From Nitrosomonas sp. Nm84 (lineage in GTDB: Bacteria > Pseudomonadota > Gammaproteobacteria > Burkholderiales > Nitrosomonadaceae), in the NCBI RefSeq assembly GCF_003201565.1, contig NZ_QJJP01000011.1:1-49644 (forward strand): a DNA stretch of 49,644 nucleotides, given 5' to 3'. The notes beneath the pieces are model-generated. The model saw nothing but the letters and a program-made list of their open reading frames with translations, was not told the origin of the DNA and ran no database searches. Shown one piece after another: positions 45,730-49,644 of this stretch. The stretch's first letter is position 1; every line of letters starts with the position of its first letter. The position numbers and the translations under genes are program-made.

Positions 45730-46413
45730 AAGCGTGTAACTTGATGTAGTGGAAGCAATCTCAATGACAGAAAGTGTCCTAGATTTTGTGCAAATAGTGT
45801 CTAATAGTAATGGGGCACTTTTTCGTTAAAATAAACTGTAGTAATTCAGACCTAATCTGACAATTGCCCGATTTGACGATGCGTCTGTTAGATCAAGCTC
45901 AGTTATTCAATGCGATGAATTTTATCGCCCCATTCTTCCTTTGCGTCAATTAAAGCAAGCTTAAGTATCAGCAATAGCAGATTCTCTGGTTTGATAAACA
46001 TTATCTGTCAGTGTCAGCCATTCACGTTTCAAGCGACTGAAGAAGCGTTCAATAATGGAATACCTCCTTATCGGATAGGACATGCATCGCGATTGCTTCC
46101 TGTCGAGTTTCAATCTATCAATTCATCGATTTCCTTCAAGAAATTCCCTTTCCGGGTGCGGCGAGTTGCATCATATTCCGAAAAACTCATGCCAATCACT
46201 TCAATAATCAGTTTTAGAACATAGTTATAACACCCGACCCAGTACCCTAGGATCGTTGCCGTGCAAAGGTTTCATTGAATGAAATAAGAAGTAAAAAGCG
46301 GCGTTTTACACGATTCAGCGATGCGGATATATGGGTAACATATTCCTACGCGATGTAGTTTCTTGCTTACATATTTCAATCTCATACGGTTTTAAAGACT
46401 AAGGATATACTTA
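45730..46413. mobile_element. Decayed insertion-sequence region
   Basis: There is no intact gene in this 684-base stretch. It contains a 40-codon remnant of an IS3-type transposase on the minus strand (45961-46083), a plus-strand segment coding LLPVEFQS like the extreme C-terminus of the same transposase type (near 46090-46115), and a short plus-strand open stretch (about 45857-45963, ...SSSVIQCDEFYRPILPLRQL...) I cannot name. An 8-bp inverted repeat AATGGGGC / GCCCCATT lies near 45812 and 45928. The parts are in opposite orientations, so more than one event has occurred. Confidence 0.55.
45961..46083 (-). pseudogene. IS3-family transposase OrfB fragment
   Basis: Forty codons on the minus strand encode a stretch with IIERFFSRLKREW and, 14 residues later, YQTRESAIAD. 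This matches the DDE integrase core end of IS3-family OrfB proteins, where a glutamate (here in IIERFF) is the last catalytic residue and the Y-x-TREEA segment follows. The upstream catalytic core is missing and a TAA ends the frame early. Confidence 0.7.
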
Positions 46414-46683
46414 ATGGCTATCAGTGTTCTGCAAGGTTTCACGCCTAACAATCGAAGCAATAAGCATGACTTAAATCTTAAAACCTATAACACAATAGCA
46501 ATCGAATCGCTTGTTGTTGAGCATGGTATGACCAACAATATGGCCGATTCAACTCGCACAAGACCAGTCGTGACCAATAGTGCGGTTGGGATTGCCAGTG
46601 TATTGCCTGCATTCTTATTTGCTCAAGATTTACGCGTAACGGCCATGGATAACTTTCAAATTGATTGGGTGGAAAATGGCTAA
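46414..46683 (+). CDS. Short ORF before the giant repeat protein, possibly its split N-terminus
   Basis: An 89-residue ORF with a good start (AAGGA seven bases before the ATG). The sequence begins MAISVLQGFTPNNRS and ends DNFQIDWVENG; it has no signal peptide and I do not recognise it. Its stop overlaps the ATG of the next gene by eight bases. If one base were removed from the AAAA run at 46673-46676, the two frames would join without a break, so this may be the true N-terminus of the giant protein, separated by a frameshift. It could also be a short coupled leader ORF. Confidence 0.6.
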   Translation: MAISVLQGFTPNNRSNKHDLNLKTYNTIAIESLVVEHGMTNNMADSTRTRPVVTNSAVGIASVLPAFLFAQDLRVTAMDNFQIDWVENG

Positions 46684-49644
46684 TAACTTTGTGCCAGTTA
46701 TTATTGGCAAATCGGCGATTACGGGTAATGAAGACAGTGCCATTTTAATTAACGGTTTTTCCGTTAGCGATAACGACAATCCATCGAGTCTCAGGGTTAA
46801 AGTGGGTGTCAGCCACGGTAGCTTGGCGCTTACCACGACAACGGGAATTACCGGAACGACTGCAGGCGCATCACTGGAGTTCGAAGGCAGCATTGCAAAC
46901 CTAAATACGGCACTCAATAGCCTGACTTATCAAAGCAACTTGAATTACTCCGGAGCGGACGGTTTGACGGTACAGGTCAGCGACGATAACGGTGTATCCT
47001 GGCATGACTATCTCGTCGATCAGCCCGGGAAGTTTTATAACTCAAACAATGGCCATTACTATGAATTCGTCAACGCTACCGGTATAACTTGGGCAGCTGC
47101 CAAAACTGCTGCGGAAAGCCGTACAGTCTACGGTTTGAATGGCTATCTGACAACGGTTACCTCGCAACTGGAAAATGATTTTATTAAACCGAAACTAGGT
47201 GGCATTAGATGGATGGGGTCTAGCGATGCAGCTACAGAGGGTGATTGGCGTTGGGTAACCGGACCTGAGGCAGGTACGCAGTTCTGGTCCGGAAATGGCT
47301 CTGGAAGTGCTATCGGTGGTTTATATAACAATTGGTACAGCGGAGAGCCGAATAATTACGGTGCGGGCGAAAATTATGGTCTTTTTTATCAGGCGGATAA
47401 GTGGGCTGATGCACCAAATAATTTTCTCAACTATGCAATAGGCTATGTTGTCGAATATGGCGGGACTGGATTCGGCACGCTGCAAACCGTACCGCTGACC
47501 GTCACGGTCAATGCAGTCAATGACGCTCCGGTTCTGAATAATCTTTCTGGCGATGCCGCCACGACGACAATCAATCAGGTTGTGCTAATCGATATCGGCA
47601 CGGTGGTCACCATCACCGATGTAGATACAACCAATTTCAATGGCGGTACCCTGGTTATCACCACCACATCCGGTACCGCCAACGGCAGCTTCTCCCTTGA
47701 TGGCGCCAATGCCGCTTCCGGTGGTAATAATACGGTCGCAGCGGGTGAAACCATCACCGTCGGTGGAACGACGATCGGTACCGTGCATGCCACCAATGAT
47801 GGCCAAAACGGCCGTACCCTGACCATCACACTCAATAGTAATGCGACCACAACCAATGTCGCCACATTGATTAAAAACATCGGCTTTGAGAGTGCTACTG
47901 CCGGTTTGCGTAATTTCAATCTTGCGCTATCGGAGAGCGACGGCCAAACCGCCAATGCCGCATTCTCAGTCGATGTTCAAAACAATCCGATGGTCAAGGG
48001 AAGATCGTCGGTAGCGGGTAACGAGGACACGCCGATCAGCATTACTGGATTGACCGTCAGCGATGCCGACAATCCCGCCAGCCTGACCGTCAAGATAGCA
48101 GCCAATCAAGGCTCCTTGACGCTGGGCACGACCACCGGCATTACCGGCACGACATCCGGAAATTCCCTGCAATTTAGCGGCAGCATTGCCAATCTGAATA
48201 CCGCCTTGGGCGGCCTGTCCTATCAAGGTAATTTGAATTATTCCGGAACGGACGATCTAACGATACAGGTCAGCGACGATAGCGGTGCGTCCTGGCATGA
48301 CTATTTCGTCGATCAGGTTGGGAAGTTTTATAACCCAAACAATAGTCATTATTATGAGTATGTCAGCATTTACGGGATAGACTGGGCAAGCGCCAAGGCA
48401 GCTGCAGAGAGTCGCACGCTATATGGTTTGAATGGTTATCTGGCAACGATTACCTTGCAATCGGAAAGTGATTATATTACCGCCAGGCTGGGTGGCTCGG
48501 GCTGGTTCGGGGCCAGTGATGCAGCTATCGAGGGTGATTGGCGCTGGGTAACCGGACCTGAAGCGGGTACGCAATTCTGGTCAGGGGCGGCGAATGGAAG
48601 CGCTGTGAACGGGCGCTATAGTCATTGGATATCCGGTGAGCCCAATGATCAATCGGGTGAAGACTATCCTAACCTTCTGTTAAATGGATTTTGGAATGAC
48701 GTTCCCGGGAACACACCCGGTATACAAGGCTACATCGTCGAATATGGCGGCACTGGATTCGGCACACTGGGAACCGTACCGTTGACCGTCACGGTCAATG
48801 CAGTCAACGATGCTCCGATTCTGAACAACCTGAACGGCGATGCCGCCGCGACGACAGTCAATTGGGCTGTGCCGATCGATACCGGCACGGCGGTCACCAT
48901 CACCGATGGCGACACAACCAATTTCAATGGCGGCACCCTGGTCATCACCACCACATCCGGTACCGCTAACGGAAGCTTCTCTCTGGATGGTGCCAATGCT
49001 GCTTCCGGCGGTAATCATACGCTTGCAGCGGGTGAAACCGTTACCGTTGGTGGAACGACGATCGGGACCGTGCATGCCACCAATGATGGTCAAAACGGCC
49101 ATACCTTGACTGTTACCCTCAATAGTAACGCGACCACAACCAATGTATCCGAATTCATTAAAAATATCGGCTACCAAAGCGCTACCGTCGGTTTGCGTAA
49201 TTTTAATCTTGCGCTATCGGAGAGCGACGGCAAAACCACCAATGCCGCATTCTCGGTCAATGTTCAAGACGCCCCGTCGATCAAGGGAAGATCGTCGGTC
49301 GCGGGCAACGAGGACACGCCGATCAGCATTAGTGGACTGACCGTCAGCGATGCCAATAATCCCGCCAGCCTGACCGTCAAGATCGCTGCCAATTACGGTA
49401 CCCTGACACTGGGCACCACCGCCGGCATTACCGGCACGACGTCCGGAAGTACCCTGCAATTTAGCGGCAGTATCGCTGATCTGAATACCGCCTTGGGTAG
49501 CCTGTCCTATCAGGGCAATTTGGATTATTCCGGAACGGACGATTTGACGATACAGGTCAGCGACGATAACGGTGTGTCTTGGCATGACTATTTCGTCGAT
49601 CAGGTTGGGAAGTTTTATAACCCGAACAATGGCCATTATTATGA
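46676..49644 (+). CDS. Giant repetitive surface protein with C-type lectin-like domains (runs off right edge)
   Basis: The frame from ATG 46676 stays open to the window end (989 codons), so the full protein is much larger. It has no signal peptide, which fits type I secretion via a C-terminal signal outside the window. It is built of units of about 430 residues: a cadherin-like part (GNEDxxIxIxG, VSDxDNPxSL), a C-type lectin-like domain of about 150 residues (KFYNxNNxHYYE ... GDWRWVTGPEAGTQFWSG ... SGEPN ... VVEYGG), and a second Ig/cadherin-like part (NAVNDAPxLNNL ... NFNLALSESDG). The EPN motif is in both complete lectin domains; WND is in the second, WAD in the first. It is probably an adhesin or biofilm matrix protein. 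Confidence 0.82.
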   Translation, partial: MANNFVPVIIGKSAITGNEDSAILINGFSVSDNDNPSSLRVKVGVSHGSLALTTTTGITGTTAGASLEFEGSIANLNTALNSLTYQSNLNYSGADGLTVQVSDDNGVSWHDYLVDQPGKFYNSNNGHYYEFVNATGITWAAAKTAAESRTVYGLNGYLTTVTSQLENDFIKPKLGGIRWMGSSDAATEGDWRWVTGPEAGTQFWSGNGSGSAIGGLYNNWYSGEPNNYGAGENYGLFYQADKWADAPNNFLNYAIGYVVEYGGTGFGTLQTVPLTVTVNAVNDAPVLNNLSGDAATTTINQVVLIDIGTVVTITDVDTTNFNGGTLVITTTSGTANGSFSLDGANAASGGNNTVAAGETITVGGTTIGTVHATNDGQNGRTLTITLNSNATTTNVATLIKNIGFESATAGLRNFNLALSESDGQTANAAFSVDVQNNPMVKGRSSVAGNEDTPISITGLTVSDADNPASLTVKIAANQGSLTLGTTTGITGTTSGNSLQFSGSIANLNTALGGLSYQGNLNYSGTDDLTIQVSDDSGASWHDYFVDQVGKFYNPNNSHYYEYVSIYGIDWASAKAAAESRTLYGLNGYLATITLQSESDYITARLGGSGWFGASDAAIEGDWRWVTGPEAGTQFWSGAANGSAVNGRYSHWISGEPNDQSGEDYPNLLLNGFWNDVPGNTPGIQGYIVEYGGTGFGTLGTVPLTVTVNAVNDAPILNNLNGDAAATTVNWAVPIDTGTAVTITDGDTTNFNGGTLVITTTSGTANGSFSLDGANAASGGNHTLAAGETVTVGGTTIGTVHATNDGQNGHTLTVTLNSNATTTNVSEFIKNIGYQSATVGLRNFNLALSESDGKTTNAAFSVNVQDAPSIKGRSSVAGNEDTPISISGLTVSDANNPASLTVKIAANYGTLTLGTTAGITGTTSGSTLQFSGSIADLNTALGSLSYQGNLDYSGTDDLTIQVSDDNGVSWHDYFVDQVGKFYNPNNGHYY
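46706..49644 (+). repeat. Long tandem repeat, period 1293 and 1287 bases
   Basis: Equivalent codons of the GNED segment begin at 46706, 47999 and 49286, and the codon of the conserved Trp at the lectin-domain start lies at 47000, 48293 and 49580. Two complete units and the start of a third are therefore present, all in one reading frame. Units two and three look closer to each other than to unit one. The array continues past the window. Confidence 0.9.

What the first reader, a model, noticed from the sequence alone, without database searches (positions are those of the whole stretch)
46676..49644. Giant adhesin with repeated C-type lectin-like domains bearing calcium motifs
Each ~430-residue unit contains a lectin-like domain of about 150 residues between cadherin-like parts. 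EPN is found in both full copies and WND in the second (WAD in the first), the calcium and mannose-type sugar motifs of animal C-type lectins. Such motifs are rare in bacteria. The protein could bind sugars of neighbours, hosts or floc matrix. The tandem copies allow for recombination and thus variable binding.
Basis: partly seen in the sequence, partly recalled or inferred. Interest (0 to 1): 0.75.

Follow-up and report, generated by a model that had tools for sequence, protein, structure and literature searches.

The report
Bacterial protein with tandem C-type lectins
A Nitrosomonas (ammonia-oxidising) bacterium encodes a large protein with calcium-binding repeats, likely exported by type I secretion, that carries three or more copies of a lectin domain resembling animal mannose-binding lectins, each likely held out on a split cadherin-like domain, so it would likely grip sugars of neighbouring cells or biofilm with the help of calcium.

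Summary
The frame from 46661/46676 runs off the window to contig position 52549 (1962 codons, one 180-N gap). [quoted passage not shown] RTX repeats and DUF4214 follow. Unit 2 models at pLDDT 95 and superposes on mannose-binding protein C at 1.3 Å over 114 residues. It keeps all five calcium/sugar ligands; unit 1 reads EPN/WAD, unit 3 DPN/WND. Of 302 relatives' domains covering the site, 260 have EPN, 24 QPD, and 276 keep all five ligands. Each CTLD lies where a cadherin-like domain would run into its last strand: the 'split domain' plan of known RTX adhesins, with a cargo not found in the papers searched. The genome has a complete PrtD-type type I system.

Corrections: five whole relatives have one unit. 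A stray 1107-bp contig matches both gap edges, so four or more units are likely. The 5' end lost about 450 residues that relatives have, leaving an out-of-frame 89-aa remnant; the gene may be decaying. No anchor was recognised, so 'adhesin' is unproven. Unit 1 looks mosaic; all segments are under purifying selection. CTLDs are uncommon in Pseudomonadota (7 or 10 of 299 genomes). Sugar binding is untested.

The parts
46414..46683 (+). 89-aa frame: remnant of the N-terminal region of the relatives, with two deletions against P0002; ends out of frame with the lectin frame
   Evidence: tblastn P0002 residues 162-233 to 46459-46665 (52.8% identity); the next match is P0002 537-706 to 46691-47200, so 303 residues are missing between
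46661..49644 (+). Main frame (TTG 46661 or ATG 46676), open to C11:52549 beyond the window
   Evidence: Pfam
46694..47023 (+). Unit 1, first part of the split cadherin-like domain (residues 12-121)
   Evidence: Big_9 match; comparison with uninterrupted domains
47024..47467 (+). Unit 1 C-type lectin-like domain (residues 122-269): EPN 47345-47353, Glu 47369-47371, WAD 47402-47410
   Evidence: Lectin_C; langerin match; motif positions
47468..47530 (+). Unit 1, closing strand of the split domain (VNAVNDAP)
   Evidence: strand order seen in the unit 2 model
47531..47983 (+). Unit 1 second cadherin-like domain (residues 291-441)
   Evidence: Cadherin_4 best stretch 279-348; repeat family D2
47987..48316 (+). 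Unit 2, first part of the split cadherin-like domain (residues 443-552)
   Evidence: Model pLDDT 95
48317..48754 (+). Unit 2 C-type lectin-like domain (residues 553-698) with all five site-2 ligands: EPN 48638-48646, Glu 48659-48661, WND 48692-48700
48755..48817 (+). Unit 2, closing strand of the split domain (VNAVNDAP)
   Evidence: Strand 266-271 of the model follows the CTLD; in uninterrupted relatives VNxVND follows directly; strand pairing was not measured
48818..49270 (+). Unit 2 second cadherin-like domain (residues 720-870)
   Evidence: Repeat family D2, 86% identical to the unit 1 copy over 300 nt
49274..49642 (+). Unit 3, first part of the split domain and first 13 residues of the CTLD; the rest lies behind a 180-N gap (C11:49645-49824), with DPN and WND after the gap

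Best explanation
This is a Nitrosomonas RTX protein with three or more C-type lectin-like domains, likely exported by type I secretion and predicted to bind mannose-, glucose- or fucose-type sugars through calcium. Shown by sequence or model: each ~430-residue unit has a cadherin-like domain whose closing strand comes only after an inserted ~145-residue CTLD, followed by a second cadherin-like domain; unit 2 has the CTLD fold and all five site-2 ligands; RTX repeats and DUF4214 close the protein; the genome holds a complete PrtD/HlyD/TolC set. Inferred: the C-terminal end drives export; calcium outside the cell folds the RTX part and stiffens the cadherin-like rod; each lectin stands out sideways from its split domain; several weak sites in a row give avidity for cell-surface or matrix polysaccharide. 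Units 1 (WND to WAD) and 3 (EPN to DPN) are predicted to bind more weakly or differently, so unit 2 is the likely working site in the sequenced part. The array likely grew from a one-unit form, with recombination. The copy in this genome has lost most of its N-terminal region and would start at an internal codon; whether it is still made is not known.
For: Lectin_C 39.3 bits against a cut-off of 22.6; langerin 1.4e-8; unit 2 model pLDDT 95.0, pTM 0.85; Foldseek and VIA rank animal C-type lectins first; motifs line up with CD23 in a profile alignment; 276 of 302 relatives' domains keep the five ligands by a rule that allows E or Q then N or D, 252 of 302 strictly E-N-E-N-D; split arrangement; RTX and DUF4214; PrtD, HlyD and TolC all over NCBIfam cut-offs and adjacent; dN/dS 0.10-0.27; one unit in five whole relatives.
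Against: No binding data. No calcium was modelled. Unit 1's alanine in WND and unit 3's DPN are found in none of the relatives' domains (0 and, apart from the stray contig P0121, 0 of 302), so two of three sites may be impaired. The 5' end is decayed. No anchoring module was recognised. Only 3 of 85 genus genomes hold the long RTX form. The exporter is not beside the gene.
Confidence: 0.66

Rival explanations
1. A decaying gene: the lectin array descends from a working protein, but in this strain the gene lost its start and N-terminal region and is no longer made.
For: About 450 residues lost in two deletions, the second out of frame; two of three lectin sites altered; an IS3-type transposase lies about 280 bases downstream; the stand-alone CTLD gene of the same genome is also degraded.
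Against: No stop in the 1962-codon frame outside the gap; RTX and C-terminal region intact and 71% identical to PY1 with dN/dS 0.14; ATG 46676 lies just before the upstream stop, so restart is possible; type I export does not need an N-terminal signal (recalled). dN/dS cannot date a recent loss.
Confidence: 0.35
2. A secreted matrix lectin and not a cell-anchored adhesin: the protein is released and cross-links polysaccharides of the biofilm.
For: No retention module recognised by Pfam or NCBIfam in the window or in P0002; RTX, DUF4214 and a PrtD-type exporter.
Against: The relatives' N-terminal region has no known fold and could anchor; my model of it failed. Known RTX adhesins have a similar extender and split-domain build (PMC12077191, passages).
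Confidence: 0.45
3. The CTLD binds protein or another non-sugar ligand, as intimin and invasin do, and the EPN/WND motif is inherited structure only.
For: CTLD folds serve many ligands (PMC6468738, passages); no sugar data here.
Against: The whole calcium and sugar ligand set, not only the fold, is kept in 276 of 302 relatives' domains, which structure alone would not ask for; intimin and invasin lack the long loop, which is present here.
Confidence: 0.15

Closest known systems
Nitrosomonas sp. PY1 protein W03_24290 (P0002; 'lectin-like protein' in UniRef)
   Same: Same family: split domain with CTLD (73% identical over 277 aa), second cadherin-like domain, RTX repeats, DUF4214
   Different: One lectin unit with EPN and WND; whole N-terminal region of about 540 residues before the unit
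Animal C-type lectins: mannose-binding proteins A/C, langerin, CD23
   Different: No cysteine in the known residues of the protein, so no disulfides; an extra TGPEAG..FW stretch against CD23 in the alignment; borne on a split cadherin-like domain of an RTX protein
RTX adhesins with split domains: AhLap of Aeromonas hydrophila, FrhA of Vibrio cholerae
   Same: Ligand-binding domain projecting from a split Ig-like domain, RTX part, type I export (PMC12077191 and PMC10865825, passages read)
   Different: Cargo there is a carbohydrate-binding module, peptide-binding domain, RTX-like or vWFA domain; the words C-type lectin do not occur in the AhLap paper's main text. No retention module recognised here
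Intimin and invasin CTLDs
   Same: CTLD fold in a bacterial surface protein (PMC6468738, passages)
   Different: They lack the long loop that holds the calcium and sugar site
Stand-alone CTLD proteins with a PEP-CTERM end in other Nitrosomonas
   Same: CTLD; EPN and WND kept in 8 of the 9 fetched loci L063-L071, the ninth (L070) not caught by my filter
   Different: About 180-230 residues, PEP-CTERM end, no RTX part

Membership tests
[quoted passage not shown]
   39.3 bits against 22.6, two stretches
Calcium-dependent animal-type carbohydrate-recognition domain | Five site-2 ligands (EPN, E, WND) | tested here: met
   Met in unit 2; not met in unit 1 (WAD) and unit 3 (DPN)
Calcium-dependent animal-type carbohydrate-recognition domain | Two conserved disulfides | tested here: not met
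   No cysteine in the known residues; 181 of 319 relatives' stretches also have none. So not filed as an animal-type CRD, only as a member of the fold superfamily
Calcium-dependent animal-type carbohydrate-recognition domain | Calcium-dependent sugar binding | not testable with these tools
   Needs purified protein
RTX protein of type I secretion | RTX nonapeptide repeats | tested here: met
   HemolysinCabind 60.7 bits against 23
RTX protein of type I secretion | Type I exporter in the genome | tested here: met
   TolC 299.5, HlyD 386.7 and PrtD 772.8 bits, each over its cut-off, in one gene cluster on contig C10; not adjacent to this gene
RTX protein of type I secretion | Export through that system | not testable with these tools
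   Needs a secretion assay
RTX adhesin (LapA, MpIBP, AhLap kind) | Ligand-binding domain emerging from a split Ig-like domain | tested here: met
   Sequence order against uninterrupted domains and strand order in the model; strand pairing not measured
RTX adhesin (LapA, MpIBP, AhLap kind) | N-terminal retention module | tested here: inconclusive
   No family matched the 89-aa remnant or the first 600 residues of P0002; the model of that region failed

The most novel reading that the evidence does not exclude
Bacteria hold their own calcium-dependent C-type lectin system that parallels the animal one: the same EPN/QPD sugar-specificity switch (260 EPN and 24 QPD of 302 domains, both in one protein in 8 cases such as P0013), often without the animal disulfides, and deployed in nitrifiers as cargo of split cadherin-like domains on type-I-secreted RTX proteins, where tandem arrays grow and recombine to change valency and sugar choice in the biofilm.
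Probability: 0.4. Interest if true: 0.72.

Novelty: new variant of a known kind. Interest (0 to 1): 0.52.

Why it matters
It joins two known designs that were not found together in the papers searched: the animal-type calcium sugar site and the split-domain display of RTX adhesins. The bacterial set shows both EPN and QPD forms, so the rule that predicts mannose- against galactose-type binding in animals becomes testable in a separate lineage, with often cysteine-free domains that should be easy to make in E. coli. For nitrifying biofilms it names a concrete candidate for sugar-based attachment, with unit number as a natural variable.

Tried and rejected
Diversifying selection on the lectin: not seen at segment level, dN/dS 0.10-0.27 in all 22 segment comparisons printed; several dS values are above 1 and so poorly measured, and single sites were not tested. 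Simple recent triplication: not supported; in a tree of 63 rows unit 1's front half does not pair with unit 2, which groups with PY1 and P0007 (well-supported branches force 2 changes). HlyB-type exporter: none of 43 matches passed the cut-off, and the best ones are other ABC exporters judged by length and neighbours; the fifth proved to be the PrtD-type gene. Fold of the relatives' N-terminal region: the model of P0012 with 7 rows failed, mean pLDDT 41.7, and was not used. Upstream transposon remnant: a transposase-like stretch was seen by eye on the minus strand within 45800-46420, but the downstream IS3 transposase does not match there, so it is unproven. Programmed frameshift at the end of the 89-aa frame: thought unlikely because 303 residues are missing at the same point. 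Diversity-generating retroelement: not tested.

Literature: no paper in the library holds four of the terms 'lectin C-type domain', 'C-type lectin', 'RTX', 'adhesin', 'cadherin-like'. Five papers hold one of six phrases for bacterial C-type lectins; I read passages of two, which concern LecB, intimin and invasin, and saw the other three as listings only. Nine papers hold both 'Nitrosomonas' and 'C-type lectin' and three hold 'Nitrosomonas', 'adhesin' and 'RTX'; of these I read passages of PMC7730722, which has no 'lectin', and saw the rest as listings. Most subscription papers are not in the library.

Full report
What is there. The window is G000:C11:1-49644, and its genome shares its genus with G058. 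G058 is taken to be Nitrosomonas sp. PY1, because P0002, named for that strain, lies on a contig of 2,710,791 bases, the length of G058's contig. The frame from TTG 46661 (or ATG 46676) is open to C11:52549: 1962 codons, 61 of them read as X because of a 180-N gap that starts at the base after the window's end. Residue numbers below count from TTG 46661.

Domains. Pfam finds Cadherin_4 (43.2 bits), Lectin_C (39.3) and Big_9 (38.5) in the window part, all over their cut-offs, and HemolysinCabind (60.7) and DUF4214 (37.7) in the part beyond. The repeat spacing is 431 and 429 aa. Each unit runs: about 110 residues of a cadherin-like domain, about 145 of CTLD, about 20 ending in VNAVNDAP or VNTVNDAP, then about 150 of a second cadherin-like domain.

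Is the site kept in relatives? I scanned the 239 homologs held (the 120 + 120 listed, less P0001, the window's own) with a profile of unit 1, unit 2 and PY1. All 239 gave at least one hit; of 319 aligned stretches, 302 cover all seven motif positions: 260 EPN, 24 QPD, 18 others. By a rule that allows E or Q, N or D, then E, N and D, 276 of 302 keep the five ligands; 252 are strictly E-N-E-N-D and 21 strictly Q-D-E-N-D. The listed homologs are those most like the query, so these shares lean towards EPN. QPD is found in 18 proteins, 8 of which also have EPN. The only DPN is in P0121, the stray contig discussed below, and no relative has alanine in WND. A tryptophan, which galactose-selective C-type lectins require (PMC8092209, passage), was seen between the motif and the next glutamate in 4 of 24 QPD loops, so galactose binding by these is not assured.

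Split domain. In cadherin-like domains of relatives without a CTLD, the VNxVND motif follows 10-19 residues after the end of the matched front part wherever the strict pattern was caught close by; other rows had no strict match or matched only in the next domain, though many show a similar strand there by eye. In units 1 and 2 of the window about 170 residues lie between. The model's last strand (266-271) comes after the CTLD. Split domains that project a ligand-binding domain are described for AhLap and FrhA (PMC12077191 and PMC10865825, passages read).

Export. The genome has one adaptor over the type I HlyD cut-off, at C10:53746-55014, out of 16 matches. Beside it lie TolC-type and PrtD-type genes, and all three pass NCBIfam cut-offs. 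At least 135 RTX repeat matches lie in the genome (150 of 256 candidates were scored), so this exporter probably serves many proteins. The C-terminal ends are alike (DGLILL here and in PY1), which fits a C-terminal signal; that reading is inference.

Relatives and unit number. In the genus, 15 of 85 genomes match a CTLD profile. Three have the long RTX form, G000, G058 and G420; the other 12 have frames of 179-291 aa. Five whole relatives have one CTLD each: P0002, P0003, P0004 and P0010 and the L072 frame of G420, all with EPN and WND. In a sample of the phylum, Lectin_C matches 7 of 299 genomes, own included, and 0 of 14 controls; the bacterial profile A3 matches 10 of 299, own included. So the domain is uncommon in Pseudomonadota, while 1,222 proteins matched the unit in the large database, where only the 7,985 candidates sharing most words were scored.

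The hidden unit. P0121 is a 369-aa translation on a 1107-bp contig. Its first 60 residues are identical to the 60 just after the gap, and its last 60 differ at 3 places from the 60 just before the gap. Its rear cadherin-like domain differs from all three units (121, 115 and 112 of 151 identical to units 1, 2 and 3), and it is not placed in G000. 1107 is the repeat period 1287 minus the 180 N. The simplest reading is that the gap is a collapsed repeat that hides at least one more unit. That the contig comes from this strain is inferred: its source is given as '-', as for the window's own protein.

History of the array. Between units 1 and 2, silent divergence is 0.60 in both front parts but 0.29 in the rear domain (0 of 5000 permutations reach the difference); for units 1 and 3 it is 0.66-0.67 against 0.39 (0 of 5000). 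Units 2 and 3 show no such contrast between front and rear (1333 of 5000). Unit 1 against PY1 shows a smaller contrast in the same direction (21 of 5000), while units 2 and 3 against PY1 show none (4016 and 4121 of 5000). So unit 1's front half is an older or foreign piece, and its rear half has been exchanged or homogenised within the array. A faster silent rate in unit 1's front is a weaker alternative. All dN/dS values are 0.10-0.27: purifying selection over the long run, which cannot date the recent truncation.

The 5' end. The frame 46414-46683 matches P0002 162-233, and the lectin frame matches from P0002 537; 303 residues are missing between, and the frame is lost. About 146 more are missing near the start (15 residues before the match here, 161 in P0002). 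ATG 46676 lies 5 bases before the upstream stop, so restart by coupling is possible but untested. An assembly misjoin at this point cannot be excluded.

Verdict. That it is an adhesin with variable binding is plausible but untested. The most useful result beyond the finding is the joint picture: a calcium sugar site kept across the listed bacterial CTLDs in both EPN and QPD forms, and its display on split cadherin-like domains of RTX proteins.

Noticed in passing
L006:5147-5542 (G000:C14:90147-90542): A second CTLD gene of the genome, 131 aa with a PEP-CTERM end. It reads EPR and LWGA where relatives have EPN and WND, and lacks the front seen in L063-L069: probably decaying.
   Followed up: partly
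L063-L069 and L071 (other Nitrosomonas genomes): Stand-alone CTLD proteins of about 180-230 residues with EPN, WND and a PEP-CTERM end: the genus seems to send the same lectin fold out by two routes.
   Followed up: partly
C11:49645-49824 (L005:3646-3825), just beyond the window: 180-N gap whose length plus the 1107-bp stray contig P0121 equals the repeat period of 1287: a likely collapsed repeat.
   Followed up: partly
L005:6829-7593, minus strand: IS3-type transposase (rve, HTH_21) about 280 bases behind the lectin gene; a transposase-like stretch by eye upstream of the gene is unproven.
   Followed up: partly
P0011, P0013, P0020, P0031: Homologs with 9, 7, 6 and 5 CTLD stretches; P0013 mixes QPD and EPN domains.
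   Followed up: no
P0035, P0041, P0043 and similar: The cadherin-like plus CTLD pair also stands near the N terminus of many proteins of about 600-1000 aa, some with Big or peptidoglycan-binding Pfam domains.
   Followed up: no
window 46661-49642: G+C of the frame is 0.516 against 0.459 for the window.
   Followed up: no
G000, several contigs (C1, C3, C8, C19, C40): At least 135 RTX repeat matches in many long frames, for one type I adaptor over its cut-off.
   Followed up: no
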